Positions 1,561 through 62,031 of a stretch of DNA of 62,031 nucleotides are shown in pieces (positions within the stretch are counted from its first letter, which is position 1; every line of letters begins with the position of its first letter). The notes under the pieces are model-generated. The model worked only from the letters and a program-made list of their open reading frames with translations, was not told the DNA's origin and did not search any database. The position numbers and the translations under genes were made by a program. Source of the DNA: Basidiobolus meristosporus CBS 931.73 (taxonomy: Eukaryota > Basidiobolomycota > Basidiobolomycetes > Basidiobolales > Basidiobolaceae); assembly GCA_002104905.1 (NCBI GenBank), contig MCFE01000524.1, positions 1 through 62,031 of the forward strand, in the 5' to 3' direction.

Positions 1561-1720
1561 TTGTAAAGGTCAATACAATGGGTAATTGAGGTACAACTGA
1601 AGCTTTAACAGAAATAAATCAATTTGTATGCATGAAAAATAAGAGAAATGGTTAGTCAGGTGGTAAGGAGTGTGAAAAACAGGAACTGACCAATCAATGC
1701 GCACAAATGTAGGAGGTGAT

Positions 1721-2254
1721 AGACAATGATATTTGTTTGCTAGGCAGGCTAGGCTTGGTGTTCTTTGGAGTGCTAGATATACTAGGCTTGGATAGAGACT
1801 AGAACTGAATTGTTGGATTCTTATTTTTGCTGAGACAGAATCTTAATTTCATTGAGACACACACTAAACCAAAAGGTTCAGTAAACTTTATTTATACTTT
1901 TCTGATCAAGCTGAATTAGTAAGCACCAAGGGACTGGATTGATTGAAATCAATTTGGGTGTTCATAGGTGCATAAGATAAATGAAAATTACATCATCAAT
2001 CAACTGATGTCTTGGCAACTGCACAGTGGTTGGATAGATCTCAGATGACTAATCACCTGGAAGGCTTGGCAGATAGGTTGATAACGTAATGACCATTTGA
2101 AAATAGATCAGGTGTGATAGCTAAAAATAGATTCTGAGGTGGGATAAAATAAACTGTAACTGGGATTTGTTATGTTTGGGTTAGGGAAAATCAGTTAGGG
2201 TACTAGATTTTCAAATGGAGTAAAATTGGCTAAGTTTTAAATGTTGATGCACAC
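1721..2254 (-). repeat. Chromovirus 3' LTR, truncated
   Basis: This stretch corresponds to 6940-7472 of the complete LTR with only scattered substitutions. The outermost ~160 bases (equivalent of 6780-6939) are absent and replaced by unrelated sequence. The truncation is at the chromosome-internal edge of the element. Confidence 0.85.
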
Positions 2255-2255
2255 A

Positions 2256-4760: not shown

Positions 4761-6739
4761 AGGGCTGTTGAATGTTGTGTGACAGGGGCTTGAGTGATAA
4801 TTCCATTGTCAGCCCATTTTTGGACTATCTCATCAACTAAGTGTTGACATGAATGCAGAATTGGGTATTGCCTCATCCATGTTGACTCACCAGGTGGGGT
4901 CTCTAGTGTAACAATGGATTCTGGGATGGTGCAGAAGCTGTTCCTTGGAATGGCCTGATTTCTCTCTATGGCCGGCTGAATATCCAATTTGACTGATTGA
5001 GAATATTCTTGAAAAGTTGGGGTTAACTCTTCTTCTTCCAGTTGGAATGAGATAATCTCTGGGATTTGATCCATTATGAGCGGCTGAGATTTAGTGATTC
5101 CTGGATAGGAAACTGGTAGTCCGCCTATGTGAAAGCCAAGTTTGGTGAAGGTGTCCAGACCACTGACTACCTGAGGTCCATCTGGTATGTCAATAACTTC
5201 CATCTGATGGATTATGGTTACTGAGCCACAATATATGTTGATTGGGTTGGTAATGCCAATTCTTGGGGCTGAGAGATCCTTAGCTGCAAGAATGATTTTT
5301 CCTGGTTGTTTTGCTATCTCCCAATTGAGTTCTCTGACTACATTGGGTGATACAATAGAGTTGGATGCTCCAGTATCCAGTAGTGCTACGTATGATAGGC
5401 CATTGAGGGTGAGTGGCACTTCTATGGCTTTGAGCCGTGTGATTGGTTGCTTCTTCTCTTGAACAGTTGCAATTCTAACTGGAAACTCAAAGAGGTTGTG
5501 ATAATCTTGAGCTGTAAGTTCTTCATATGCTTCTTCATACCCCATTGTATCATTGGCTGAATGATCATCAAGGATCTGGATAATTTTGGCTGATGGTGTG
5601 GAGTTCTTCTCAGGACAGGCAGGTGATCTATGTCCCATATTTCCACATTTAAAGCACTTGTCATCAGCATATGGATTATCAGTTTTGGTGTTTTGCTGCT
5701 TTTCTGAGGTGTTTCCTGACTTGTTTGACTGCTTGGTGATGCCTTTGCATTCAATGGTAGAAAGATAGCATTTTCCATGAAGCTCACAGTGCTTGGTAGC
5801 GGTTGACTGCTTCTTGGTCACATGACTGGTCTCTTTTCCGGCTGTTGTGGGATCTTGGGTTGAGTTGCCTGAAGTCTGGCTAACAGCTGCAATCAAGGTG
5901 ATTGCCAGTGTACATATCTCTGAGATCTGGTCATAGGTACGTGCAGGGTTGCATGCTTTGACAATAGCAATATTGCTCTGTAGCTGGTGTGAAAAGTATG
6001 AAAGAAAATGAGCAGTAAGCAATGGATTATCATCACTAACTCCAGCTAATCTCATTTGTCTTTAGAATCTATCACAGAAGTGTTGCACAGATTCACCTTT
6101 TTGCATTTTAGTTTTCCATAAGTTGCAGTTCAGATGTGCTTTCTTGAGAGGATCTTCAAAATGGCTGCAAAAGAGGTTTTGGGCAATTTTCCACACACTA
6201 TTGGAAGGAATGTTCACTTCAACCCAGTCAGCATCTTGCATTGTGAGACAGAGAGGCAGAAGTCTAGCCCAGTTGGTGTCAGGGTCTAGCTGGTGTGCAG
6301 CTATGATGTGACTAAACTTGTAAAGAAACTCAGTTGGATTCTTGATGGCATTGGTGCCTTCAGCATAAAAAGGCAAGGATCTTGGGACAACCACCGGGGC
6401 AGGTCTAGAAGGAGATTTATATCTGGACAATTCAAAGGCATGACTTCTTGGTGGCTGATGCAGAGCAAGGCTTGGCGGATTTTCAATGCTGTCAATTACT
6501 ATGGCAATATTCTCCAGTGCTTCCTTAATAATTCAAATTTCATCGTGGTAACCAGATATAACTTCAAGGAGTTCATCTCTACGGTGATTATCAGATCTTG
6601 TTTTGGCAAGCTTTGAGTGCTCAAGCATCATGGTATTTCTTTCAAGCATGATGTTTTCAAGCTGTTCAGTAAGTTCTTCCTGATTTCTTCTGGCTTCTTC
6701 CAACATGGAAAGGTTTGAATTGCTTGCTGCTGAGGACAT
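4757..6739 (-). pseudogene. Chromovirus Gag-protease, broken
   Basis: The frame starts at 6739 with a Ser/Glu-rich, coiled-coil-like segment and continues in the same frame to 4757. It is interrupted by TGA at 6533-6535 and TAA at 6062-6064. Domains in order are: helical N-terminus, capsid-like region (about 6430-6062), a CCHC knuckle (CFKCGNMGHRSPAC, near 5650), and an aspartic protease with LLDTGAS (near 5380). The ORF ends just as the RT frame begins, with about four bases of overlap. This is probably a frameshift mutation, because the RT N-terminal residues are continuous in the next frame. A programmed shift cannot be excluded. Confidence 0.85.
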
Positions 6740-8639: not shown

Positions 8640-11600
8640 TTAACTAAATGTACATACTGACTAGTTCTAATTTTGACCTAAAATATTCAAGCTTGTCTCT
8701 AGTTGGTGGTTTGGTAAATAGGTCTGCTATCATTTCATGTGTCAAACAGTAAGCTAAGTTAACCAGGTTATTCTCTAAGCTTCACATAAGAAATGATGTC
8801 TAATATCTACATGCCTAGTTCTAGTATGAAAAGCTGAATATCTACCTAATTGTATATAGCCTTAATTATCTTGAAATAAAGTAATAGGCATTTTTTGATA
8901 TAAGCCTAAATCTTTAAAAAGCCTCCTTAGCCCCATTACTTTGCTTGTAGCTTTACAGGCTGCCAGATACTCTGCCTCTGTGGCAGAAAGTGCTATGGTT
9001 GGTTACGTACTTGAATTCTATGATATTGCTCCTTTACAGTTAAGAAAAGTGTATCCTGTGATGGATCTTCTGTCTTCCAAATTTCCTCCCCAATCAGCAT
9101 CAGAGTAACCCACAAGATCTTGTTCTGAATTGTTATAAGTGTATCTTAGGCAGATATCAGCAGTTCCTTTTAGGTATCTAAAAATCTGCTTAACTGCTGC
9201 AATATGATCTGATCAAGTAGTTCTGATTATGCTGGCTGACAACTCCAACTGAATATGAGATATCTGGACATGCTTCAAGCATGATATACATCAGACTGCC
9301 AGCCATAGATTGATAAGAAAGGTCAGGGCTTTCAGATGGCACCAAGCTCTCTTGATTTGGTGGAGTTTAGATCAAGTTAAGGTTTGTCTCCATTGAGGTA
9401 GCTGCAGGTTTGTAGTCTTCCATTTAGTACTTCTTTATTATATCTTGAGTATACTTGGATTGGCTTAGGGTGATAGTCAGGGTACTTCTGTCTATCCAGA
9501 ACTTTATCCCTAAGTAGTAACTGTGTTCTCCTAGATTAGACATCATGGACTCCTCTGATTGGCTGGACTTAGTCTCTTCCAATGGTTTGAGGTTATTGGG
9601 GGCTATAATAAGAGCATCTACATATAGAGCTAATAGAACCTGATCTGTTCTATCTGGCTTATAGCATATACTATAGTCAGCATTACTCTTTTTGAAACTG
9701 AAGGACCCCAAACTCAACTCTATTTGGCAGTTCCAGACTTTTGGTAATTGTTTGAGTCCATATAAAGACTTTTTAAGCTTGGAGACCAAATGGGGGTTAT
9801 CTTGGCCAACAAACCCATCAGGCTGGTCCATATACACACCCCCATCAAGTGCTCCATTCAAAAATGCAGTTTTTACATCTATTTGCTGTATTAAAAACTT
9901 ATATTTGGCTGCAATAGCCAATATTATTCTGATAGGATTAAACTTGTCTTCCAGTGCAAAGGTTGTAGTATAGTCAAGTCCCTTTGTTTGAGAGTATCCT
10001 TTGGCCACAATTCTTGCTTTGTATATTTCAATCATACCATCAGCCTTGTATTTTGTCTTAAAGACCCATCTGCATCCAATTGATTTATGGTTGATTGGTA
10101 ATTTGACTAAGTCCCAGGTTTGATTTTCCATTAGGGCCTGATATTCCTCAGCCATTGCAGATCACCAAAACCTTGTCTGAGGGCAATTTAGGGCCTCTTT
10201 TACAGTTGGGGGTTTAACAATATGAATTGAACAGGCATAGGCTAAGTTTGTGCCCTTGTTGATATGGTAATTTGGTCTATTTCTTGTCTGGTTGGATCTC
10301 TGGGCATTTGATACTGGAATGATCACTTCTGGGATATTCCTGGACACCAATTCTGGCTGAACCACAGTTGTAGAGCTTTCTGGAGTGAAAAAATCTTCAT
10401 TGTTTTGCTCTGATTCAATCCTGACAATTGGTGGACTTGAGATCAAATATTTGTCATTATCTGATGTCATTTTTGGTGAGCACTTTGAATCTCATCAAAC
10501 AACACATCCCTGTACTTGACTAGCTTCTTTCCTTTGGTACTGTAAGATCTGTATGCCTTACTCTCATTGCAGTAGCCCAAAATATGCATTTTACACTTTT
10601 TGGCTTATATTTTGACTGATTTCTAAGCAGTTTCTTGGCATATGCTGTAGACTCAAATATTCTTAGATGTTTTGCACTTGGCCTGTATCCACAACATGCT
10701 TTAAATGGAGTAAAATCACAAAGTATTCTATTATAACTCCTATTTCTAAGGTATACAGCTGTGACAACTGATTCTGCCCAAAAATCATAGAATATTTTTT
10801 GATCACGAATCATAGATCTTGCCATATCAATTATTGATTTGTTGCACATTCTGCTACTCCATTTTGCTGAGGGAAGTATGGTACAATAGTCTCTTGCTTT
10901 AACCCATGAATTATGCAGAAGTTGATGAAGAGTTTTGATGTATATTCTCCAGCATTGTCAGAGCATATTTTCTTGATTTGTTCACCAGTTTCTCTCTCCA
11001 CCTTGGCTTTAAACTCCCTGAGCTTAGAAACAGCTTCTTCCATTCTCTCCATGTAGTAGACCCATGTGTATCTTGTATAACCATTAATAAAAGTGATTAA
11101 ATACTTCATCTCACCTAATGATAAAATTTTGCATAGTTCCACACAGATTTGAGTGAATTGGATCTAATTTTTTCTTAGTTTTGATTAGCCCAGCACTCAT
11201 GAACAGTTGTCTGGATTGTTTCCCATATATGCAGGCTTCACAGTGCTCCAAATTAGCTGGGGGATCAACTTTTATTCCAGAAATTAGCTGATCTTTGATC
11301 ATTTTTTGCAAATAGTCAAAATTGATGTGTCCAAATCTCCTGTTCCAAAGCATTGGTGTTTCTTCATTTAAGTTACTTACATTGGCTTCCAGATATGATA
11401 GAATATAGGTCAATGTATACAGATTCTGGTCTCTGAAACTCAAAACAATATGGGCACCATTTTGATCAATGATCCTGCATCCAGAATTTTCAAAGCAGAA
11501 ACTGGGTGCTTCTGGTGTGGCCTTGCTTACCAATAGTAAGTTCTTGGCTATTTCTGGTAACCCAAATCTCCTGTGCCAATGCATTGGTGTTTCTTCATTG

Positions 11601-21811: not shown

Positions 21812-24645
21812 ATGGTGAAAAAAGAGAAACCGGTGAAACCCAAAGCGAAACAACCCTACTACAAGGTGAAAAAGGCGGAGGATACCTCGGATTACGAGGA
21901 GGTTAGCCAAGACGACGATAGTGATGTTGAAACCCCAAATATCGCCAGTGCTCTGGTGCCAACTGGAGGTGCTCTGTTGGACGATGGGTTCGAGGATTTG
22001 GACGAGGAGGAGAGTTTCATCGCTAAGCAGAACCAGGCGGCCAATAAAAAGAGAAAGAAGTCTGGCGGTTTCCAATCCATGGGTTTGTTGGTTTGTTTCT
22101 GTTCCATCCACGGCTCCGTACTTACTGATTTGTGCTAGGCTTGAGTTATCCTATTTATAAGGCGATTCTTCACAAGGGATTCAAAGTCCCAACTCCTATC
22201 CAGCGTAAGACCGTCCCGATCATCATGGAAGGGAAGGACGTGGTGGGTATGGCCCGTACTGGTTCCGGTAAAACCGCCGCGTTCTTGATTCCGTTGCTGG
22301 AGAAACTGAAGAGTCACTCGGCCAAGGTAAATCGGTTTTGGACGAAAGATTTTTCTCGGAACAGTCAACTGAACCGACACCTAGGTTGGCGCTAGAGCCA
22401 TTGTACTTTCCCCATCAAGAGAACTGGCTATGCAGACCCAAAAGGTCGCCAAGGAGCTCGGCAAATACACTGATTTGCGAAGCTGTATAATCGTTGGTGG
22501 TGACAATATGGAAGATCAGTTCCAGATGCTTGCTGCGAATCCCGATATGTAAGGAGATTTAACCAAAGGTTCTATTCGCCAGCAACTAACGTGTTGATGT
22601 TGCAGTATCATTGCCACCCCCGGTCGTTTGCTGCATTTGATCGTTGAGATGGAATACGATCTCAAGTCAGTCGAGTACATTGTGTTTGATGAAGCCGATC
22701 GGTAAGTGGGTCACTATAATCAGAGGCATCCTACGAAGGTACTCACGCTAGTTCCCCCAGTCTTTTTGAGATGGGCTTTTCGGTCCAACTCCACGAAATC
22801 CTCAGCCGTCTTCCCGCCTCCCGCCAAACCCTTCTTTTCTCCGCCACATTGCCCAAGCTGTTGGTGGATTTTGCCAAGGCTGGCCTTCAATCCCCTACCC
22901 TCGTCAGATTGGATGCTGATACCAAGATCAGCAAGGACTTGGAGATGGCATTTTTCTCCATCAAGCATGAGGAGAAGGAAGCCTCCCTCTTACTGCTGCT
23001 TCGTGACGTGATCAAGACGCAGAAGATCACCTCGGCCTTGAAGTATACCGACAAAAAGTTCAAGATCGAGGACCTCCACCAAACGATCATCTTCGTGTCA
23101 ACCAAGCATCATGTCGAATATCTGAACGCCATCCTCACCAAGGCCGGCTATGCCGTTTCCTACATTTATGGTTCGCTCGATCAAACAGCTAGAAAGATTC
23201 AGATCAATGACTTCAGACTGGGAAAGACCAGCATCCTGGTGGTGACCGACGTCGCGGCTCGTGGTATCGATATTCCAGTCCTGGAGAACGTAATCAACTA
23301 CGACTTCGTCGACAGCAGCAAGGTTTTCATCCATCGTGTGGGAAGAGTTGCGCGTGCCGGTCGACGTGGTTGGGCCTACTCGCTGGTAACCAACGAGGAG
23401 CTCCCTTACCTGTTGGATTTACAGCTCTTCCTCGATCGACAACTCTTGATTGGGCAAAAGGAGTCCACCAGCGTGGACTATACTCAGAGTCTTGTCATCG
23501 GCAGCTTGCCAAGAAACCTGCTTGAAATCAGCCTTGAATGGATCCAAAACGTGCTCCATGACGACCTCAACATTTCAGCTCTGCTTCAGGTTTCGAAGAA
23601 CGGATACAAGCTATACTGTAAATCTAGACCATCCGCAGCCCCCGAATCCTACAAGAGAGCCAAGGACGTCATCAGTACACCCGGGTTTAGTGACATCCAC
23701 CCTATTCTCAGAGAAGCGGCAGGTGACGAGGAGCAAGAGCGTCTCAACATGATCAACAAAATCTCCGGCTTCAGACCGCACGAAACCATCTTCGAGATCG
23801 GAAATCGTGGAACCAAGAAAGCCAGCGAAGCAGCCATCATCATGAAAAAGAGACGTACCATTGTGGACAACGTGATCGAGGCGAAGAAGGCCGATGTCGC
23901 CAAATCCCGCATGAATCAAGAACTGGCAGTGCCCGCGAAGAAGAAGGTTGACGAGGTGAATGAGGATGAGCTTGTGCAGATCTTTGACACGCCGAAGAAA
24001 TCCAAGAAATCCTTCCGTGACGAGGAATACTACATGTCCTATACTCAAACGGATGCCAACACCGAGAAGGGCTATTCCATGACACAGCCCGGCTCCTTCG
24101 CTGAGCAGGCACAATCGGCCGTACTGGATCTCCAGGGTGATGAACGTGACACCATGCAGGCCAAGAAGAACCAGCTTCGTTGGGATTCCAAGAAGAAGAA
24201 CTTTGTTCGTGGCAGCGGCATCGGTGCCGACAACAAGAAGCTCATCACCACCGAAAATGGTACCAAGCTGCCTGCATCCTACAAAAGTGGTAGTTTCTTG
24301 GATTGGCAGAAGAAGAACCGTGTTCACATGCCACGCATCGGAGAACAGGAGGTATCAGGGGGCAAATTTGCCAACAAGCGATTCAAGCACAACAAAATCA
24401 CCACACCCAAGAAGCTGGATCCCCTCTCTGTCAACTACGAGAAGAAACTCCAAAAGAGGAAAAAGGACCCCGAGGAGAGTACTCAGCAAGGCCACAAGCG
24501 TCGTGTTGGCACCAACGTTAAAGGGGAGCTTAAATCGGTGGACCAAATCCGTAAACAGCGCGAGCTCAAGGAGAAGAGACGGCAAAAGACGGGTCGCCAC
24601 AACAAGGGAGGAGGCAAGGCGAAGAAAGGAAAGGGTAGAAAATAA
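21812..24645 (+). CDS. DBP10: ATP-dependent DEAD-box RNA helicase Dbp10
   Basis: Five exons, 21812-22082, 22139-22326, 22385-22548, 22606-22701 and 22761-24645, join in frame to 867 codons. Motifs in order are: an acidic N-terminus; Q motif ([14 protein letters not shown]); Walker [29 protein letters not shown] (FSATLPK); RGIDIP; and [12 protein letters not shown] long C-terminal half carries the Dbp10 C-terminal domain (near [16 protein letters not shown]) and ends in a Lys/Arg/Gly tail. Yeast Dbp10 is a nucleolar helicase for 60S subunit assembly and is 995 residues, so this one is somewhat shorter. Introns cluster in the helicase N-terminal domain. The third interrupts the PDI-IATPGR block and the fourth falls directly after DEAD. 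Confidence 0.96.
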
Positions 24646-53121: not shown

Positions 53122-55138
53122 TCAGACTGCCACCATAGACTGAAAAGAAATGTCAGAGCTTTCAGATGGTGGCAAGCTCTCTTGATTTGGTGGAGCTTTG
53201 ACCAGGTTAAGGTTTGTCTCCATTGGGGTAGTTGCAGGTTTGCAGTCTTCCATTTGGTACTTCTTTGGTACATCTTGAGTATACTTGGATTGGCTTAGGG
53301 TGATAGTCAGGGTACTTCTGTCTATCCAGAGCTTTATCCTTGAGTAGTAATTGCATTCTCCTAGATTGGACATCTTGAACTCCTCAGATTGGCTGGACTT
53401 AGTCTTTTTCAATGGTTTGAGGTTATTGGCAGCTATAACAAGAGCATCCACATATAGAGCTAATAGAGCCGGATCTGCTCTACCTGGCTTATAGTATATA
53501 CCAAAGTCAGCATTACTCCTTTGAAACTCAAGGACTCCAAAAACAATTCTATTTTGCAATTCCAGGCTCTTGGTAATTGCTTGAGTCCATATAGAGACTT
53601 TTTGAGCTTGCAGACCAAATGGGGGTTATCTTGGCCAACAAACCCATCAGGCTGGTCCATATACACATCCTCATCAAGTTCTCCATTCAAAAATGCAGCT
53701 TTTACATCTATTTGATGAATTGAAACTTATATTTGGCTGCAATAGCCAATATTATTCTGATTGGATTAAGCTTATCAACCAGTGCAAAGGTTGCAGTATA
53801 GTCAAGTCCCTTTGTTTGAAAGTATCCTTTGGCCACAAGTCTTGCTTTGTTTCTTTTGATTGTACCATCAGCCTTGTATTTTGTCTTAAAGACCCATCTG
53901 CATCCAATTGATTTTTGATTGATTGATAATTTGACTAAGTCCCAGGTTTGAATTTCCATTAGGGCCTGATATTCCTCAGTCATTGCAGAACACCAAAACA
54001 CTGTCTGAGGGCTTTTTAAGGCCTCTTTTATAGTCTGCAGCTCAACAATATGAATTGAATAGACATAGGCTAAGTTTATGCCCTCATTGATATGGTAATT
54101 TGGTCTATTTCTTGTCCAGTTGGATCTCCAAGCATTTGATACTGGAATGATCACTTCTGGGATATTCCTGAGCACTGATTCCGGCTGAACCACAGTTGTA
54201 GAGTTTTCTGGAGTGAAAAAATCTTCATTGTTTTGCTCTGATTCAATCCTGCCAATTGGTGGACTTGAGATCAAATATTTGTCATTATCTGATGTCATTT
54301 TTTGTGAAAATTTCAAATCTCATCAAACAACACATCCCTGGACCTGGTTGGCTTATTTTCTACAGTATTGTAGAATCTGTATGCTTTATTCACATTCCAT
54401 TAGCCCAGAATATGCATTTTACACTTTTTGGCTCAAATTTTGATTGATTTTCAAGCAGTTTCTTGGCATATGCTGCAGACCCAAATATTCTTAGATGTTC
54501 TGTGCTTGGTCTGTATCCATACCATGCTTCAAATGGAGTAAAATCACAAAGTGTTCTGTTATAACTCCTATTTCTAAGGTATACAGCTGTGGCAACCGAT
54601 TCTGCCCAAAATTCATAGGAGAATTCTTGAACATGAATCATAGATCTTGCCATATCAATTATTGATTTGTTACACATTCTGCTACTCCATTTTGCTGTGG
54701 GAAGTATGGTACAGTAGTCTCTTGCTTTATCCCATGAATTGTGCAGAAGTAGATGAGGAGTTTTGAGGTATATTCTCCACCATTGTCAGAGCATACTTTC
54801 TTGATTTGTTCACCTGTTTCTCTCTCCACCTTGACTTCAAACTCCCTGAGCTTAGACACAGCTTCTTCCATTCTCTCCATGTAGTAAACCCATGTGTATC
54901 TTGTATAACCATGAATAAAAGTGATCAAAAACTTCATCCCACCTAATGATAAATTTTGCATAGGTCCACACAGATCTGAGTGAATTAAATCTAATTTTTT
55001 CCTAGTTTTGATTAGCCTGGCACTCATGAACAGTTGTCTGACTTGTTTCCCATATATGCAGGCTTCACAGTGCTCCAAACTAGCTGGGGGGTCAATATTT
55101 ATTCCAGAAATTAGCTGATCTTTGATCATTTTGTGCAA
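53122..55138 (-). pseudogene. Copia Pol fragment (integrase and RT), broken
   Basis: The integrase D, D and E motifs are all present in this copy, but the reading frame is broken between integrase and RT and again inside RT. The block VKTAFLNG, with [15 protein letters not shown], and the active site ALYVDALVIA are readable. The first-copy integrase has lost a catalytic Asp, so the two copies have decayed independently while sharing the YVDA change. Confidence 0.8.
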
Positions 55139-55156
55139 ATAATCAAAATTGATGAG

Positions 55157-55785
55157 TGTTGTATCCCAGAGAAAAGTGTAATAAAACTTGTGAATGAGTT
55201 AACTGAACATAAGTGATAACTAAGTGCAGAGTCCCAGAATTGTCAAGGGTGACAGAGATATTAGCAGAGAAGTTCTAGTCTAATATTGGCTTTGTATAAA
55301 GTTGAGCTGGGCTATAAAGGCAACAGAGCTGGTTTGCTATACAGGCTAGGCTTGGTATTCTTGGGAATACTAGATGTGCTAGGCTTGGGTGGAAACTATA
55401 ATGGAATTGTTGAATTCTTAATTTTGCTGAAGCACAATTTTAATTTTGTTGTGACACACACTAAACCAAAAGGTTCAGTAAACTTTATTTATACTTTTCT
55501 GATGGAGTTGCATTAGTAAGCATCAAGAGACTGGACTAATTGAAATCTGTTGGGGTGTTGATAGTTGCATAAGATAAATGAAAAATTGCATCATTAATCA
55601 GCTGATGTCTTGGCAACTGCTAAGTGGTTGGATAAATCTCTGATGACTAATCACTTGGAAAGGCTTAGCAGATCAGTTGAGTACATAATGACCACATGAA
55701 AATTGATCAGGTGTGACAGCTAAAAATAGATTCTGAGAAGTGATAAAACAAACCATAACAGGGATTAGTTATGTTTGGGTTAGGG
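55157..55785 (-). repeat. Chromovirus-type LTR, truncated at a telomere-like motif
   Basis: It starts TGTTGTATCC like the LTR at 6780 and stays recognisably similar for ~630 bases. It stops at GGGTTAGGG (55777-55785), the same motif found inside the intact LTR. The last ~70 bases, including the CAACA end, are missing. LINE unit L1 begins directly after the motif. Confidence 0.88.
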
Positions 55786-58071
55786 GGGAGACAGTCACCA
55801 ACAGGTGAAATCTTTATTTCAGTTGAAACAAAGAAGCCAGCGCTACTGTTGTAGCTTTGATACAAGAGTGTGTAGCTGAGGGGAATTTGTAGGTAAGTTA
55901 ATAAGAAGTGATGATAGTTCTTCAGTGCTCAAGACACTGTTCAGTGGGAAGGGGGGTAGCAAGAGAGGTAAGAATGACTTGTGAACAACATTAATGAGGG
56001 GAATGTGATAAGGATTGATATTCATCATAAAGGGAGTGTGCTGCTGCAGATATTGCTGCCAAAGGTCTGTCAAGTACTTCAGGTAGGCCAGCTTGGGTTT
56101 TTCTGACTGCAGAATATAGTGTGCAAACTTCTTGACTTCAGGATCTCCAAGTATAGTTCTCCAGCAGGAGTCAGGTGTTGTGTGGTGTGTTCTCTTCCAG
56201 GCCTTAATCAGTGGGTTGTTGCAGTTGTGAAGTCTGAGGTATAATCTGGTTCTAAGGTAGAGAAGTCTGATCTTATAGGGCATAAACCCAAAAGCACCAA
56301 GAATAGCATGTCTGTAGGGGCATTCAGGCAAATGAGGCACCAAGGAGGTAATGCACCATACTGCAAACTTGTCAAGCTTAGTGCAGTCTCTAGAAGTAAG
56401 AGAGAGAAGTGGTAAGCCAAATTCCAGGACAGGGAAGACAAACTGCTTGAGTAGAAGGAGGCAGCTGGGAGCTGAAGTTGTAGGAGGAGTAACAGCCAGT
56501 AGTTTGTGGAGTGCCTGTCTTGCCAGGATAATTCTCTTGTTCAGGTGTGCTCCAGAGTCTAGTCCAGTAGGAAGGAAAGGAAAGCCAAGATATGTAGCAG
56601 AAACCTGAGCAGGTAGAGTGGAGTTCTCCAAGTTGATGGGAGAGCCCAAAGGTACTGTCTTTGCAATGGAAAGCTGGAGATTATTCTTCTGCAGATACTG
56701 GTAGATGGTCTGGGAGTCTTGTTGCACATTGGAGGAGGATATTCTGATGTCATCAGCAAAGAGAGTAACCAGGCAGTCAGCTGAGAGTCTTGGGAAATCA
56801 TTCAGGAAGATGGCAAACAATATAGGACCAAGCACAGAGCCTTGAACCACTCCATTAAGAACTGAGAACACAGCTGATTGCTCACTTGGGTGCAGAATTC
56901 TTGCTTGTGGATCCAGAAACAGAGACCTGACAAGGAGGGTGAGAGAGGTACTGGAGAAGCATTGCAACTTGGACCAAAGCAGATTTCTGTCAACTAAATC
57001 AAAGGCCTTAGTAATATCAAACAGAACAGAGGGATACTTGCACTGGAGAGAGTGATCTTGGCTAAGTATGACTGCATATTCCAAGGAGAGGCCAGGAACA
57101 AAGCCAAACTGTGCAGGATGAAACTTGAGGGAATCAGAGTAGAGCTCCTGAGCAAGCAGAAGCTCAAACACCTTTCTGCAGGTGGGCAGCAGAGATATTG
57201 GCCTGTAGGAGCTAGGATCCAGGTGCTTTCCTTTACCCTTGTACAGTGGCAGAACATTTGCAAAGGACCATTCCTCAGGAGTAGAAAGCTGGGCTGAGCA
57301 TTGCTCAAACAGTGGAAGCAGAAGTGCAGACATGGCCTTGGTACTAGTCTTCAGAAGCTCATAAGAGATTGTGTCCACACCTGGAGCAGTAGAGTTGGGA
57401 AGCCTCTTGAGCACATTATGGATTCTCCTTTGACCAAGTGCAAGTGGGATGGGCAGAGTCTTGAAGTCAGGATGAAAGCCAGGAGTTGAGTACTGCTTTG
57501 TAGAGAAGAAGATGTTAGCCAGCTGTTCTGTTGAAGGTAACTTCCTGGAAGAGGGCCTCATTGCTCTGTAGAGTCTTGATACTGTTCTTGTTATAGAGTT
57601 GGAAGATTGCAGAGGCAAAGAACTCATAATATGATCCCAGAGCTGAGTATGCAGAGTGTGGTGAGTTGCCTTGGAGTGGTGTATTGCTGTCAGGAGGAGT
57701 TTCTCTGTTTTTGGGTTAGGGAAACTCAGGTAGCTTTGTTGCAGGGCTGAAACAATGGATTCCCATTTTCTTGAGGTAACAGCAGTAGTCTTGCATGGCA
57801 GTGAGAGGGAGGCAGACACCAGAATCAGATGCTTCACAAAGAGCCAGGCATAGTTGAGATCATCTGGCAGAGAAAGTAGCAAACTGGCAAGCTTCAAGTA
57901 GTTCCCAAAGTCTTTCTTCTGATTCTTGGTAGCTTTGTGGGTGAGCACAGTAAGTTTTGGCAGCTTCTTCTTCACAACTGGTTGCATAGAAAGGGACCAG
58001 GCTGGTGGTCAGAGGCTCTCAAGGATCCTAGCTCAGCTCCAGAGAATTGCTTAACTTCATTCACAAAGTAG
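55786..58071 (-). mobile_element. Telomeric non-LTR retrotransposon unit L1 (5'-truncated)
   Basis: The 3' end of the element faces the centromere: GGGGGG then AGACAGTCACC on the plus strand, fused to GGGTTAGGG of the LTR. The 5' end stops at CACAAAGTAG (58071), inside the endonuclease domain compared with L2. It is nearly identical to L2, with a small percentage of substitutions plus one single-base deletion near 58007 that breaks the endonuclease frame. There is no poly(A) tail. The RNA-sense end is a run of C. Confidence 0.92.
55843..57987 (-). CDS. LINE ORF2 fragment of L1: reverse transcriptase and C-terminal region
   Basis: 714 open codons. RT blocks in order are RPISLLPTCRKVFELLLAQEL, AQFGFVPGLSLEYAV, VLFDITKAFDLVDRNLLW, GVVQGSVLGPILFAIFLNDF and the catalytic FADD in TLFADDIRISS. 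The C-terminal ~250 residues are Leu- and Tyr-rich, with no classical Cys/His knuckle that I can see. The frame is intact, so truncation rather than decay limits this copy. Confidence 0.88.
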   Translation of the reverse strand: MQPVVKKKLPKLTVLTHKATKNQKKDFGNYLKLASLLLSLPDDLNYAWLFVKHLILVSASLSLPCKTTAVTSRKWESIVSALQQSYLSFPNPKTEKLLLTAIHHSKATHHTLHTQLWDHIMSSLPLQSSNSITRTVSRLYRAMRPSSRKLPSTEQLANIFFSTKQYSTPGFHPDFKTLPIPLALGQRRIHNVLKRLPNSTAPGVDTISYELLKTSTKAMSALLLPLFEQCSAQLSTPEEWSFANVLPLYKGKGKHLDPSSYRPISLLPTCRKVFELLLAQELYSDSLKFHPAQFGFVPGLSLEYAVILSQDHSLQCKYPSVLFDITKAFDLVDRNLLWSKLQCFSSTSLTLLVRSLFLDPQARILHPSEQSAVFSVLNGVVQGSVLGPILFAIFLNDFPRLSADCLVTLFADDIRISSSNVQQDSQTIYQYLQKNNLQLSIAKTVPLGSPINLENSTLPAQVSATYLGFPFLPTGLDSGAHLNKRIILARQALHKLLAVTPPTTSAPSCLLLLKQFVFPVLEFGLPLLSLTSRDCTKLDKFAVWCITSLVPHLPECPYRHAILGAFGFMPYKIRLLYLRTRLYLRLHNCNNPLIKAWKRTHHTTPDSCWRTILGDPEVKKFAHYILQSEKPKLAYLKYLTDLWQQYLQQHTPFMMNINPYHIPLINVVHKSFLPLLLPPFPLNSVLSTEELSSLLINLPTNSPQLHTLVSKLQQ

Positions 58072-58080
58072 GGTTAGGTA
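58072..58080. other. Telomere-like junction between L1 and L2
   Basis: GGTTAGGTA joins the truncated 5' end of L1 to the G-run at the 3' end of L2. It is a partial telomeric unit and looks like the remnant of a former chromosome end. Confidence 0.7.
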
Positions 58081-58088
58081 GGGGGGGG

Positions 58089-58107
58089 AGACAGTCACCA
58101 ACAGGTG
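58089..58107 (-). promoter_or_regulatory. 3'-terminal hairpin of L2 (same in L1)
   Basis: The plus strand reads TCACC-AACA-GGTGA, a perfect 5-bp stem with a 4-base loop, 6 bases from the C-run end of the RNA. L1 has the same at 55789-55807, and L3 has TCACC-AAGGTA-GGTGA at 60875-60890. Stem kept, loop changed. Confidence 0.7.
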
Positions 58108-58142
58108 AAATCTTTATTTCAGTTGAAACAAAGAAGCCAGCG

Positions 58143-60767
58143 CTACTGTTGTAGCTTTGATACAAGAGTGTGTAGCTGAGGGGAATTTGTAGGTAAGTTA
58201 ATAAGAAGTGATGATAGTTCTTCAGTGCTAAACACACTGTTCAGTGGGAAGGGGGGTAGCAAGAGAGGTAAGAATGACTTGTGAACAACATTAATGAGGG
58301 GAATGTGATAAGGATTGATATTCATCATAAAGGGAGTGTGCTGCTGCAGATATTGCTGCCAAAGGTCTGTCAAGTACTTCAGGTAGGCCAGCTTGGGTTT
58401 TTCTGACTGCAGAATAAATTCAGCAAACTTCTTGACTTCAGGATCTCCAAGTATAGTTCTCCAGCAGGAGTCAGGTGTAGTGTGGTGTGTTCTCTTCCAG
58501 GCCTTAATCAGTGGGTTGTTGCAGTTGTGAAGTCTGAGGTATAATCTGGTTCTAAGGTAGAGAAGTCTGATCTTATAGGGCATAAACCCAAAAGCACCAA
58601 GAATAGCATGTCTGTAGGGGCATTCAGGCAAATGAGGCACCAAGGAGGTAATGCACCATACTGCAAACTTGTCAAGCTTAGTGCAGTCTCTAGAAGTAAG
58701 AGAGAGAAGTGGTAAGCCAAATTCCAGGACAGGGAAGACAAACTGCTTGAGTAGAAGGAGGCAGCTTGGAGCTGAAGTTGTAGGAGGAGTAACAGCCAGT
58801 AGCTTGTGGAGTGCCTGTCTTGCCAGGATAATTCTCTTCTTCAGGTGTGCTCCAGAGTCTAGTCCAGTAGGAAGGAAAGGAAAGCCAAGATATGTAGCAG
58901 AAACCTGAGCAGGTAGAGTGGAGTTCTCCAAGTTGATGGGAGAGCCCAAAGGTACTGTCTTTGCAATGGAAAGCTGGAGATTATTCTTCTGCAGATACTG
59001 GTGGATGGTCTGGGAGTCTTGTTGCACATTGGAGGAGGATATTCTGATGTCATCAGCAAAGAGAGTAACCAGGCAGTCAGCTGAGAGTCTTGGGAAATCA
59101 TTCAGGAAGATGGCAAACAGTATAGGACCAAGCACAGAGCCTTGAACCACTCCATTAGGAACTGAGAACACAGCTGATTGCTCACTTGGGTGCAGAATTC
59201 TTGCTTGTGGATCCAGAAACAGAGACCTGACAAGGAGGGTGAGAGAGGTACTGGAGAAGCATTGCAACTTGGACCAAAGCAGATTTCTGTCAACTGAATC
59301 AAAGGCCTTAGTAATATCAAACAGAACTGAGGGATACTTGCACTGGAGAGAGTGATCTTGGCTAAGTATGACTGCATATTCCAAGGAGAGGCCAGGAACA
59401 AAGCCAAACTGTGCAGGATGAAACTTGAGGGAGTCAGAGTAGAGCTCCTGAGCAAGCAGAAGCTCAAACACCTTTCTGCAGGTGGGCAGCAGAGATATTG
59501 GCCTGTAGGAGCTAGGATCCAGGTGCTTTCCTTTACCCTTGTACAGTGGCAGAACATTTGCAAAGGACCATTCCTCAGGAGTAGAAAGCTGGGCTGAGCA
59601 TTGCTGAAACAGTGGAAGCAGAAGTGCAGACATGGCCTTGGTACTAGTCTTCAGAAGCTCATAGGAGATTGTGTCCACACCTGGAGCAGTAGAGTTGGGA
59701 AGCCTCTTGAGCACATTATGGATTCTCCTTTGATCAAGTGCAAGTGGGATGGGCAGAGTCTTGAAGTCAGGATGAAAGCCAGGAGTTGAGTACTGCTTTG
59801 TAGAGAAGAAGATGTTAGCCAGCTGTTCTGTTGAAGGTAACTTCCTGGAAGAGGGCCTCATTGCCCTGTAGAGTCTTGATACTGTTCTTGTTATAGAGTT
59901 GGAAGATTGCAGAGGCAAAGAACTCATAATATGATCCCAGAGCTGAGTATGCAGAGTGTGGTGAATTGCCTTGGAGTGGTGTATTGCTGTCAGGAGGAGT
60001 TTCTCTGTTTTTGGGTTAGGGAAACTCAGGTAGCTTTGTTGCAGGGCTAAAACAATAGATTCCCATTTTCTTGAGGTAACAGCAGTAGTCTTGCATGGCA
60101 GTGAGAGGGAGGCAGACACCAGAATCAGATGCTTCACAAAGAGCCAGGCATAGTTGAGATCATCTGGCAGAGAAAGTAGCAAACTGGCAAGCTTCAAGTA
60201 GTTCCCAAAGTCTTTCTTCTGAGTCTTGGTAGCTTTGTGGGTGAGCACAGTAAGTTTTGGCAGCTTCTTCTTCACAACTGGTTGCATAGAAAGGGACCAG
60301 GCTGGGTGGTCAGAGGCTCTCAAGGATCCTAACTCAGCTCCAGAGAATTGCTTAACTTCATTCACAAAGTAGAGGGCAGCAGCAGAAGGGCAGATCCAGT
60401 CAACACATCTTTTCTCAGATTGAGCACCTAGTGCTAGCAGATGGCTTTCTCTAAGGAAGTTCAGTAGGAATGTAGACCTTGGCTTCATTCTTGCAGTCAG
60501 AGTAGTCTTGTTCTCATGATGGGGAATGTTGAGATCTCCAAGCAAGATAACAGGTGTTGATATAGATTGCTGGTATTGCTGAACCTTCTGGCATATAACT
60601 TGCACTTCCTGAAGGGCAAGACTTGGAGGCAGATAGCAGAGCACCAGACTGATAGTTGGCAACTGGAGAGCAGCACAGTAAGGGAGTAAAGAGGAACACA
60701 GAGCTGAGGAGTATTGATGGTAGAAGAGATGAAGCAGATAGAGGAGGTATTCTTTGTTCTAGGAGTA
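58143..60767 (-). CDS. LINE ORF2 of L2: APE-type endonuclease (partial) and reverse transcriptase
   Basis: The frame is open from just below a TAG near 60770 to 58143, about 870 codons, without an ATG at its start. The endonuclease C-terminal motifs are VILLGDLNIP, VDWICPS and the catalytic His in RASDHPAW. The usual N-terminal Asn and Glu motifs are absent. RT blocks match L1, with FADD and GVVQGSVLGPILFA. The combination marks an APE-class LINE that cuts or uses DNA ends for target-primed reverse transcription. Some of the missing N-terminus could be out of frame upstream (60820-60670), but the unit ends 26 bases beyond that. Confidence 0.9.
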
Positions 60768-60846
60768 GAAAAGCAATATAGATTAGTCAAAAGTATAGAA
60801 GGTAGCTGAACATCAATCAAACACAGGAGGGAAAATCTTGAAAGAA

Positions 60847-60866
60847 GGTTAGGGTTAGGGTTAGGG
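60847..60866 (+). repeat. Interstitial telomeric repeat between L2 and L3
   Basis: GGTTAGGGTTAGGGTTAGGG, about three units, directly followed by the 3' end of L3 (AGGGAAAGTCACC). Confidence 0.92.
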
Positions 60867-61858
60867 AGGGAAAGTCACCAAGGTAGGTGAAATCTTTATT
60901 TGATTTCAGACAAGTCTAACTACAAATAAAGAAGCCAGCTGGGAATAGAAGATTCCCAAAGTAAACACTAAGTTGAATATGAATAAATCTAAGCTAAAGT
61001 TAAGGCAGTATCCCAGAGTACACTGGAGTTCAGGTTTATGGGGGAGTGAAGTAGATAAGCTTGAGAGATATAATAATCTTTGAGGAAGTGGGTAACAGCA
61101 GGTGAAGGGGAGTTTTTGATAAGTGAAGTGAATCTTGAGAGCAGAGATTCCTCTAATGAGAAGGTCTTGTAAACTGGAGAATCAGGAAACTCTTTAAAGG
61201 CATGGTCAGTAGGTTCCCAGTAAAACTGGTCAGAGACATTTTGAGAGAATTCTTTAGCAATACTTTTGTCAAGTACTACCTCCAGAGTATGATGGTTGAT
61301 AAATCTCATGTTAACAATCTTGGATAAGTTGTAACCTTGTTGCTTGAGATACATCCTATGCTCAGATATAGGAATGAACTCCACATTGGCAAAGTAGCAG
61401 ACAGCCCAGTCAGTAGCAGGAGGCAAATCAGAAGTGGCAGGAAACTTTCTTTTAGTCTTGGGAGGAGCAGCAGGATGTCTTGAGGAAGCAGGAACAGGCT
61501 TTTTGACAGCTTCAGAGTAGGAAGAGTGAGCAGGAGCAGATGATTCTTGGGGAGTCTTGTTGACAGGAACAGCTGGCAGAGAGACAATAGATTCTTGCAG
61601 ATCAGAGAAGGCAGAAAACAGCTTTTGAACTTGTTTCTTGAGTAAAGCATTTTCAGCTTCAACAAGTGCAAGCCTTTCCTCAAGGAAGGAAATCTGAAGG
61701 GAATGGAGTGAAGGCATAAGAAATAAGAAGAAGAGGGTAAGATGGGGTGGGTGGGTGGGAAAATTAGCAGGGAGAAGAGAAGGAAGGAGCAAAAATTCCA
61801 GAAGTCAGAATTTATAGATGGATGGACAAGGGTAGATGGATGGATTATTCCTGGGTTA
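60867..61858 (-). mobile_element. Telomeric retroelement unit L3 (ORF1 only)
   Basis: It is about 1 kb. Its 3' end shares with L1 and L2 the pattern GTCACC-loop-GGTGAAATCTTTATTT and a nearby AAAGAAGCCAGC, with a ~25-base insertion between. It contains ORF1 but no ORF2. The outer part (61784-61858) holds short GGATGGAT/GGGTAGAT-type repeats. It ends in GGGTTAGG and a 26-base direct repeat next to the telomere. Confidence 0.82.
60989..61717 (-). CDS. LINE ORF1-type protein of L3
   Basis: 242 codons from the first ATG at 61717 (the frame is open to 61792). Residues ~8-45 have heptad spacing (LEERLALVEAENALLKKQV), a probable coiled coil. A Pro/Ser/Lys linker follows, then a compact domain with FIPISEHRMYLKQQGY and IVNMRFINHHTLEVVLDKS, resembling the C-terminal domain of ORF1 proteins in other fungal LINEs. 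Such proteins bind element RNA and form particles. The stop is ~120 bases before the unit's 3' end, leaving room only for a short 3' UTR. Confidence 0.75.
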   Translation of the reverse strand: MPSLHSLQISFLEERLALVEAENALLKKQVQKLFSAFSDLQESIVSLPAVPVNKTPQESSAPAHSSYSEAVKKPVPASSRHPAAPPKTKRKFPATSDLPPATDWAVCYFANVEFIPISEHRMYLKQQGYNLSKIVNMRFINHHTLEVVLDKSIAKEFSQNVSDQFYWEPTDHAFKEFPDSPVYKTFSLEESLLSRFTSLIKNSPSPAVTHFLKDYYISQAYLLHSPINLNSSVLWDTALTLA

Positions 61859-61884
61859 GGAAAATTAGCAGGGAGAAGAGAAGG
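61859..61884. repeat. 26-base direct repeat at the telomere junction
   Basis: GGAAAATTAGCAGGGAGAAG and six more bases occur at 61758-61783 and again at 61859-61884, directly before the terminal TTAGGG array. Confidence 0.9.
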
Positions 61885-62031
61885 GTTAGGGTTAGGGTTA
61901 GGGTTAGGGTTAGGGTTAGGGTTAGGGTTAGGGTTAGGGTTAGGGTTAGGGTTAGGGTTAGGGTTAGGGTTAGGGTTAGGGTTAGGGTTAGGGTTAGGGT
62001 TAGGGTTAGGGTTAGGGTTAGGGTTAGGGTT
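61883..62031 (+). repeat. Telomere, (TTAGGG)n
   Basis: About 149 bases, close to 25 perfect units, reaching the end of the window. The G-rich strand runs 5' to 3' outward, as at a right chromosome end. Confidence 0.98.

What the first reader, a model, noticed from the sequence alone, without database searches (positions are those of the whole stretch)
55786..62031. Tandem array of telomere-tethered APE-type LINEs, 3' ends inward
Seen: three units in the same orientation, each with its 3' end facing the centromere and fused to TTAGGG-like sequence, with short telomere repeats between units (58072-58080, 60847-60866) and a full telomere outside. Known: Drosophila HeT-A/TART and the Pyricularia MoTeR elements lie at chromosome ends; Bombyx TRAS/SART insert in telomere repeats. 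Inference: here the G-rich 3' end of an eroded telomere primes reverse transcription of a C-ending RNA, the cDNA caps the chromosome, and telomerase then adds TTAGGG. This would be a combined retrotransposon-plus-telomerase system in a fungus with an APE-class element.
Basis: partly seen in the sequence, partly recalled or inferred. Interest (0 to 1): 0.93.

Follow-up and report, generated by a model that had tools for sequence, protein, structure and literature searches.

The report
Telomere-tethered LINE arrays in Basidiobolus
In a fungus with many tiny chromosomes, jumping genes with a telomere-matching tail are stacked one on another at most of the chromosome ends sampled, facing inward and capped by ordinary telomere repeats, which suggests that they are added onto chromosome ends rather than inserted inside chromosomes.

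Summary
The window is a whole contig of Basidiobolus meristosporus CBS 931.73. Units 1 and 2 are 5'-truncated copies of one LINE (family A, about 4.56 kb full length elsewhere). Unit 3 is a different, RT-less ORF1 element (C) sharing the 3' tail. Exact 3' tails genome-wide: 649 A, 414 B (SINE-like), 159 C/D. On contigs of at least 50 kb, 42 of 42 scored A ORF2 places lie within 20 kb of an end, 3' end inward; a Ty3 control gives 38 of 87. In 16 of 20 sampled telomeres the cap sits directly on A, B or C. Tracts at 3' junctions are short (median 6 nt; terminal tracts median 209). In 0 of 37 testable junctions does the inner element resume outside; 50 of 50 junctions are distinct. A telomerase gene is present. 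The endonuclease folds like AP endonucleases, but its catalytic Glu is Asp. Best reading: successive terminal addition, the RNA tail CCCCCUAACCC pairing with the G-strand, then telomere capping; a nick near the telomere start remains possible. Telomeric retroelements beside telomerase are known (MoTeR, FoTeR, TRAS/SART, Zepp); an APE-class, multi-family system in an early-diverging fungus is a new variant.

The parts
55777..55788 (+). innermost junction GGGTTAGGGGGG, between non-telomeric DNA (copia-like remnants further inward) and the 3' end of unit 1
   Evidence: sequence; Pfam RVT_2 and rve at 53.1-55.2 kb; junction parse
55789..58071 (-). unit 1: family A LINE, 5'-truncated (reference 2275-4558); keeps the RT part of ORF2, no endonuclease
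   Evidence: blast to reference A; RVT_1 87.6 bits
55843..58008 (-). ORF2 fragment of unit 1, 721 codons open
58070..58088 (+). short telomere-like tract AGGGTTAGGTAGGGGGGGG between units 1 and 2
   Evidence: sequence
58089..60847 (-). unit 2: family A LINE, 5'-truncated near the start of ORF2 (reference 1799-4558)
58143..60758 (-). ORF2 frame of unit 2, 871 codons: partial APE-type endonuclease plus RT; 98-99% identical to the 51 other scored genome places
60847..60866 (+). telomere tract of 3.3 repeats between units 2 and 3
60867..61881 (-). unit 3: ORF1-only element (family C), no RT found, shares the 3' tail with family A; 5' end within a ~101-bp repeat
   Evidence: used as reference C
60989..61804 (-). 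271-codon frame of unit 3, no Pfam match
55794..55812 (-). 3' hairpin UUUCACC-UGUU-GGUGAC of unit 1 (same in unit 2 at 58094; family C version at 60874)
61882..62031 (+). terminal telomere (TTAGGG), 25 perfect repeats, end of contig

Best explanation
These are telomere-dwelling non-LTR retrotransposons that lengthen chromosome ends by successive terminal addition. Element RNA ends in a hairpin, a C-run and CCCUAACCC. This tail pairs with the G-rich strand at a short or eroded telomere, or with a nearly bare chromosome end carrying a few matching bases. The LINE reverse transcriptase extends that G-strand, often stopping early and leaving a 5'-truncated copy. Telomerase then adds about 200 nt of TTAGGG to the new end. 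After renewed erosion the next element (LINE, ORF1-only element or SINE, sharing the tail) is added outside the last one. SHOWN here: near-terminal position and orientation in the lists examined, tail sequence at junctions, direct telomere caps on truncated elements, short tracts at 3' junctions, no resumed inner elements, distinct junctions, a telomerase gene, and a full-length copy with open ORF1 and ORF2 frames (C518). INFERRED: that RNA carries the CCCUAA end, that the natural 3' end rather than a nick is the primer, that the LINE RT mobilises the SINE and ORF1-only element, and that telomerase makes the caps.
For: (a) Position and orientation on contigs of 50 kb or more, within 20 kb of an end / 3' inward: A ORF2 42/42 and 42/42 (of 52 scored places); A tail 38/38 and 38/38 (first 100 listed of 649); second ORF2 family 20/20 and 20/20 (26 rows picked by me from 120 listed); B tail 50/50 and 50/50 (first 100 of 414); C/D tail 88/89 and 89/89 (first 100 of 159). 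Control Ty3: 38/87 and 50/87. (b) 3' junctions: 97 found, 96 with enough flank, 95 parsed; all have A, TA or TTA then a G-run; exact-period tract 1-29 nt, median 6; 42 of 95 hold less than one repeat. Terminal tracts: median 209 nt, range 109-240, 32 rows, three tracts entered more than once, the 109 being a second start inside one tract. (c) 20 terminal telomeres chosen for spacing from the 100 listed tract starts: 17 have A, B or C within 250 nt, in 16 the match runs up to the cap, with pieces as short as about 30-56 nt. (d) 50 junctions with a truncated inner element; 37 show the outer border and at least 100 nt beyond; in 0 of 37 does the inner element resume. (e) 50 of 50 junction signatures distinct; 31 A truncation points from 100 to 4460. 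(f) TERT-like motifs in C880. (g) Machinery: RT, APE-like fold pLDDT 89.7, pN/pS 0.16 over 25 intact ORF2 copies (these came from the best-scoring places, a bias).
Against: The endonuclease keeps the other active-site positions checked (Y93, D126, N128, D171, D201, H202) and its pN/pS (0.108) is like that of the RT (0.102), so it probably does something; a nick in the first telomere repeat followed by insertion would also give short inner and long outer tracts. All parsed junctions, even those at non-telomeric DNA, carry TTA or part of it, so truly bare ends are not proved. 11 of 62 A tails on contigs under 50 kb do not point inward by the nearest-end rule; at C27, C217 and C284 the 3' side has only a short telomere-like stub and then other DNA, with no telomere seen on the contig ends looked at. 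No reads, RNA 3' ends or activity data. One of 89 C/D tails lies 22 kb from the end. The Ty3 control is itself somewhat end-enriched (30/87 within 10 kb against 18.5% expected). One of 20 sampled caps sits on copia-like DNA (L094) and two on unidentified sequence found in other held loci (L096, L104).
Confidence: 0.62

Rival explanations
1. Boundary-targeted TPRT: the APE endonuclease nicks the G-strand in the first telomere repeats next to the subtelomere (as TRAS1 nicks within repeats), the element is inserted there, and the distal telomere is rejoined to its 5' end.
For: APE fold with TRAS1 endonuclease as third-ranked structural match; purifying selection on the endonuclease; every parsed junction is TTA or part of it then a G-run, as a fixed cut site would give; long distal tracts directly outside elements.
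Against: Random nicks in ~200-nt tracts would give a broad spread of inner tract lengths, but all 95 are at most 29 nt by exact period; 42 of 95 hold less than one repeat; catalytic Glu replaced by Asp in 3 of 3 clade members that cover it, against Glu in 30 of 30 relatives that cover it.
Confidence: 0.25
2. Recombination: the arrays are ordinary subtelomeric repeats spread among ends by break-induced replication or unequal exchange, with little ongoing retrotransposition.
For: Reported for MoTeR arrays (PMC7367193, passages); scored copies are 98-99% identical.
Against: 50 of 50 junction signatures are distinct, whereas copied arrays would repeat junctions; truncation points are scattered.
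Confidence: 0.08
3. Template jumping: one reverse transcription run switches from the 5' end of one RNA to the 3' tail of the next, making tandem units in one event.
For: In 7 of 95 junctions a full-length SINE 5' end is joined to the next tail with only GGTTA before the G-run; tandem SINEs about 530 bp apart in C96.
Against: 50 of the 81 element-to-element junctions mapped follow 5'-truncated units, and many hold variable telomere tracts, which jumping does not explain.
Confidence: 0.05

Closest known systems
MoTeR1/MoTeR2 of Pyricularia (Magnaporthe) oryzae, FoTeRs of Fusarium oxysporum, Cnl1 of Cryptococcus
   Same: Fungal, telomeric, 3' ends joined to TAACCC repeats (FoTeRs), 5'-truncated copies capped by new telomere with short seeds, tandem arrays (MoTeR), telomerase present (PMC7367193, PMC8381367, PMC12810828 passages; PMC12857005 sections 3, 16, 18, 19). 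That MoTeR2 lacks RT is recalled.
   Different: FoTeR and MoTeR carry a restriction-like endonuclease after the RT (PMC12857005), and CNL1 falls with R2-type elements and MoTeR (PMC12810828). Here ORF2 has an N-terminal APE-like fold, there is a separate ORF1, a SINE-like element and more than one ORF2 family, in an early-diverging fungus.
TRAS1 / SART1 of Bombyx mori
   Same: APE endonuclease LINEs at telomeres next to telomerase-type repeats; TRAS1 EN ranks third among solved folds
   Different: SART1 inserts inside repeat tracts by endonuclease cut and ends in poly(A); TRAS1 EN nicks TT/AGG (PMC7265360, passages). Here the tail is a C-run plus TAACCC, inner tracts are very short, and 5'-truncated units are stacked.
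HeT-A / TART / TAHRE of Drosophila
   Same: Terminal arrays with 3' ends inward; a gag-only element beside RT-bearing ones (details recalled)
   Different: No telomerase there (PMC5537684, abstract start in a listing); here a TERT-like gene and TTAGGG caps exist, and the tail matches the telomere repeat.
Athena EN-deficient Penelope-like elements of rotifers
   Same: Priming from exposed chromosome 3' ends, then telomere repeats on truncated 5' ends (PMC3846280, Background read)
   Different: Different RT class and no endonuclease; here a LINE with a retained APE domain.
Zepp of Chlorella
   Same: LINE accumulated at a telomere with telomerase repeats (named in PMC10088271, passages)
   Different: Green alga; further details recalled only (L1-like with poly(A)).

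Membership tests
Non-LTR retrotransposon (LINE) with APE-type endonuclease | Reverse transcriptase domain | tested here: met
   RVT_1 89.9 bits, cut-off 29.6
Non-LTR retrotransposon (LINE) with APE-type endonuclease | N-terminal APE fold and active-site residues | tested here: met
   Pfam matches are below cut-off, but the model (pLDDT 89.7) matches AP endonucleases and TRAS1 EN; Y, GDxN, D, SDH aligned; the Glu position is Asp
Non-LTR retrotransposon (LINE) with APE-type endonuclease | 5' truncation of copies | tested here: met
   31 A truncation points from 100 to 4460
Non-LTR retrotransposon (LINE) with APE-type endonuclease | Absence of LTRs | not tested
   No LTR search was run on the full-length element
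MoTeR/FoTeR/Cnl1 (CRE-like) clade | One ORF with restriction-like endonuclease after the RT | tested here: not met
   Two ORFs and an N-terminal APE fold; absence of RLE motifs was not searched for specifically
TRAS/SART (R1 clade) | Insertion inside telomere tracts with poly(A) tail | tested here: not met
   95 of 95 parsed 3' junctions end in a G-run (C-run in sense), none in poly(A); inner tract at most 29 nt by exact period
TRAS/SART (R1 clade) | RT of the R1 clade | not tested
   No tree with named clades was built
HeT-A/TART/TAHRE telomere system | Terminal head-to-tail arrays with 3' ends inward | tested here: met
HeT-A/TART/TAHRE telomere system | Replaces telomerase | tested here: not met
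   TERT-like motifs in C880; TTAGGG caps
EN-deficient Penelope-like elements (Athena) | No endonuclease | tested here: not met
   APE fold retained and under purifying selection
tRNA-derived SINE (family B) | A and B boxes at the 5' end | tested here: inconclusive
   Patterns present at 11 and 55 (consensus recalled), but ARAGORN finds no tRNA in L034, L046, L050 and Rfam none in L034
tRNA-derived SINE (family B) | Shares the 3' tail of a partner LINE | tested here: met
   Same hairpin stem and C-run tail as family A

The most novel reading that the evidence does not exclude
An APE-class LINE clade has turned its RNA 3' tail into a telomerase-RNA-like template (CCCCCUAACCC after a hairpin) and primes on the natural G-strand end. 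It carries a gag-only element and a SINE with it, and together with telomerase forms the ends of most chromosomes in a fungus with very many small chromosomes. This would be a second, independent fungal origin of telomere-building retroelements, outside the RLE-bearing clade, caught with an altered endonuclease active site.
Probability: 0.45. Interest if true: 0.85.

Novelty: new variant of a known kind. Interest (0 to 1): 0.72.

Why it matters
Telomeric retroelements are used to ask how chromosome ends came to be kept by telomerase and why retroelements sometimes take part. The fungal telomeric families read about here (MoTeR, FoTeR, Cnl1) carry, or group with, restriction-like endonuclease elements. 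An APE-class LINE with a SINE-like and an ORF1-only companion at most sampled telomeres of a genome with very many ends, in a fungus that also has a telomerase gene, gives a test bed: does the LINE heal ends, does its tail act as template, and is its altered endonuclease needed?

Tried and rejected
Tried and rejected: (1) that all three window units are one LINE: rejected, unit 3 shows no RT. (2) That end position is an artefact of short contigs: rejected by restricting to contigs of 50 kb or more and by the Ty3 control, though Ty3 is mildly end-enriched; the Ty3 figures use the earlier, less dense set of measured lengths. (3) Far-from-end A copies (C2, C113, C224, C979) were wrong interpolated lengths; true lengths put them near ends. 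(4) That inner elements are interrupted by insertion: 0 of 37 resume. (5) Spread by recombination: no shared junction among 50. (6) tRNA gene inside the SINE by ARAGORN and Rfam: none. (7) Clade naming of ORF2 (CR1/Jockey/L2-like): not done, no named reference set. (8) Relatives P0005 to P0009 have no genomic context here, so telomere position in other species is untested. (9) A plasmid tblastn for organism naming gave 12 distant bacterial records. Contig right ends chosen by scaffold number, not content: of 18, 2 carry telomere tracts, both with family sequence within about 400 nt; 6 more end inside A or B; 10 end elsewhere.


Full report
ORGANISM. The DBP10 helicase in the window (22720-24642) is 100% identical over 98% of the query to a protein of Basidiobolus meristosporus CBS 931.73 on a contig of 62,031 bases, so the window is that whole contig (C785 of 1311, 89.0 Mb). 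The assembly is PacBio-based (PMC7466969, passages). Cytology of the related B. [quoted passage not shown] One contig here, C424 (312,558 b), has telomere repeats and family B copies at both ends, so it looks like a complete small chromosome.

WHAT IS IN THE WINDOW. Reading outward: non-telomeric DNA, GGGTTAGGGGGG, unit 1 (family A, 5'-truncated), a short tract, unit 2 (family A, 5'-truncated), 3.3 repeats, unit 3 (family C), then 25 TTAGGG repeats to the contig end. Units are on the minus strand with the 3' end toward the contig interior. Unit 3 carries one 271-codon frame in which Pfam finds no RT.

THE FAMILIES. Family A, full length in C518, is 4,558 nt plus a C-run: a 5' UTR holding AACCCTAACCCTAA, ORF1 (523-codon frame, first Met at 22), TGA, then directly in frame ORF2 (922 codons, first Met at 142). 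The TGA is followed by CTA in 30 of 30 places where the flanking key sequence was found. UGA-CUA is a known readthrough context (search listing, PMC4207609 and others, listing and abstract starts only), so ORF2 is probably made by readthrough; this is inference. Family B is a ~530-bp SINE-like element with A- and B-box-like motifs at 11 and 55, although ARAGORN and Rfam report no tRNA. Family C has the ORF1-like frame and ~101-bp 5' repeats. An RT fragment beside L007's A copy (family D) found a second ORF2 family with frames up to 949 codons, about 48% identical to that fragment; its tail was not seen. A, B and C share the 3' tail AATAAAGATTTCACC-loop-GGTGACT(G/T)TC..., a C-run and TAA. A 5-bp hairpin is predicted at this place in A and B; in C the predicted fold differs (3 bp there); A has a second 9-bp hairpin.

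GENOME-WIDE POSITION. Exact tail matches: A 649 (44 forward, 605 reverse), B 414 (24, 390), C/D 159 (19, 140). TTAGGGx4 gives 7428 forward and 81 reverse hits, so the assembly's contigs happen to be turned with telomeres to the right. Contig numbers are the string-sorted ranks of scaffolds ordered by length: 99 measured lengths are monotone without exception, so other lengths were interpolated. On contigs of at least 50 kb: A ORF2 42 of 42 within 20 kb (41 within 10 kb) and 42 of 42 inward; A tail 38 of 38 within 20 kb (32 within 10 kb) and inward; second ORF2 family 20 of 20 within 10 kb and inward (26 rows picked by me); B tail 50 of 50; C/D tail 88 of 89 within 20 kb and 89 of 89 inward. 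For the tails these are the first 100 places listed of each. The Ty3 control gives 38 of 87 within 20 kb, 30 of 87 within 10 kb against 18.5% expected, and 50 of 87 'inward'. On shorter contigs the nearest-end rule fails for 11 of 62 A tails; C217, C284 and C27 were looked at and show only a short stub beside the element's 3' side and no telomere at the ends fetched, so interior relics are possible. In the held loci, 76 of 76 3' ends point to the contig interior.

JUNCTIONS. 97 different 3' ends were found in held loci, 96 had enough flank, 95 could be parsed; the unparsed one also reads GGGTTAGGGTTAGGGGGGGGG. Each reads: flank, part of TTAGGG ending in A, TA or TTA, then a run of G, then the tail. 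The exact-period tract is 1-29 nt, median 6; 42 of 95 hold less than one repeat. A few tracts go on with imperfect repeats (38 nt in L004). Terminal tracts have median 209 nt (range 109-240, 32 rows from contigs of measured length; three tracts entered more than once, the 109 being a second start inside the C476 tract). If inner tracts were uniform up to 109 nt, all 95 being at most 29 has chance about 10^-53, assuming independence; a cut site fixed near the tract start would avoid that argument. Of 81 mapped element-to-element junctions, 31 follow a unit with a full 5' end and 50 a 5'-truncated unit; 37 of the 50 show at least 100 nt beyond the outer unit, and in none does the inner unit resume. 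All 50 signatures differ. So units were most likely added one after another at the end, not inserted into older units and not copied as blocks.

CAPS. One search counted 124 tract starts preceded by a base other than G and listed 100. Twenty, chosen for spacing, were fetched: 17 have A, B or C within 250 nt and in 16 the match runs to the cap, at scattered reference positions (two matches end at the same B position, 492). L109 has C nearby but other sequence at the cap; L096 and L104 match sequence found in other held loci; L094 is copia-like DNA capped directly. Some capped pieces are only about 30-56 nt of a 3' end (L097, L103, L106). Of 18 contig right ends chosen by scaffold number, 2 had telomere tracts, both with family sequence within about 400 nt, 6 ended inside A or B, 10 elsewhere.

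MACHINERY. ORF2 has RVT_1. The N-terminal 215 residues are modelled at pLDDT 89.7 and match AP endonucleases, TRAS1 EN third. In an alignment with relatives the metal-binding Glu column (assignment recalled) is Glu in 30 of 30 other proteins that cover it and Asp in the 3 of this clade that cover it, and Asp in 25 of 25 intact genome copies. pN/pS over 25 intact copies is 0.16; by region EN 0.108, linker 0.218, RT 0.102, C-terminal part 0.247. The copies came from the best-scoring places, which lowers pN. So the endonuclease is kept, perhaps altered. A telomerase gene is present: two Telomerase_RBD pieces over the cut-off in C880 (40.5 and 34.7 bits, the second with one TAG in the stretch), and frames nearby that I read as motifs T, 1/2, A, B' and C (motif names recalled). 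Its intactness was not tested.

MECHANISM. The shared tail is complementary to the telomere G-strand. Extension of a G-strand 3' end templated by this tail gives the observed order: inner DNA, some TTAGGG, G-run, element from 3' to 5', then new telomere. Early stops, or later erosion, explain the truncated units. The SINE and ORF1-only element would use the LINE enzyme through the same tail. Whether the primer is a natural, eroded end or a nick close to the telomere start is open; the short tracts and less-than-one-repeat joins favour ends (0.62), the conserved endonuclease favours nicks (0.25).

COMPARISON AND NOVELTY. Retroelements at telomeres that also carry short telomere repeats are known in Pyricularia, Fusarium, Cryptococcus, Bombyx, Chlorella and rotifers (PMC7367193, PMC8381367, PMC12810828, PMC10088271 passages; PMC12857005 sections 3, 16, 18, 19; PMC3846280 Background). 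FoTeRs, MoTeR1, SLACS and CRE carry restriction-like endonucleases (PMC12857005), and CNL1 groups with MoTeR and R2-type elements (PMC12810828). I found no paper on telomeric retroelements of Basidiobolus with these searches: Basidiobolus+chromosomes+telomere (1 paper, other topic), Basidiobolus meristosporus+transposable elements (listing only), Basidiobolus+retrotransposon+telomeric (the one listed paper with all three terms only cites a Basidiobolus paper), and general searches (listings). The library lacks most subscription journals. I therefore call it a new variant of a known kind.

Noticed in passing
L016:4267-4269 (and 29 other places); family A ORF1/ORF2 border: ORF1 and ORF2 lie in one frame separated by a single TGA followed by CTA, in 30 of 30 places found; ORF2 has no ATG before residue 142. 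Points to stop-codon readthrough.
   Followed up: partly
P0004 residue 33, P0005, P0007: The AP-endonuclease metal-binding Glu is Asp only in this clade (3 of 3 that cover it, against Glu in 30 of 30 relatives that cover it).
   Followed up: partly
family A 5' UTR, L034:398-411: An internal TTAGGGTTAGGGTT (sense AACCCTAACCCTAA) in the 5' UTR of the three 5' ends read (L033, L034, L036), purpose unknown; perhaps a binding site for a telomere protein.
   Followed up: no
L074; L036; 5' end of window unit 3: Family C has a ~101-bp 5' repeat, at least five copies in L074, each with GGGTTAGG, recalling the variable repeats reported upstream in FoTeRs.
   Followed up: no
G000:C424 (L046, L050): A 312,558-base contig with telomere repeats at both ends: looks like a complete small chromosome.
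   Followed up: partly
G000 contigs: Contigs are mostly turned with their telomere to the right (7428 against 81 hits); an assembly convention, cause unknown.
   Followed up: no
window 2256-6532; 9424-10161; 53122-55198: Ty3-like element with chromodomain and copia-like remnants; the Ty3 family is mildly enriched near contig ends (30 of 87 within 10 kb).
   Followed up: partly
L060 (C284 left end): Tandem repeat containing GGAAACATCGGATCTCTTC.
   Followed up: no
L008 near sense 4105-4210: Divergent tails (AAGATTTGACC..., AAGATTCCATAAACATGG...) suggest further old families with altered hairpins.
   Followed up: no
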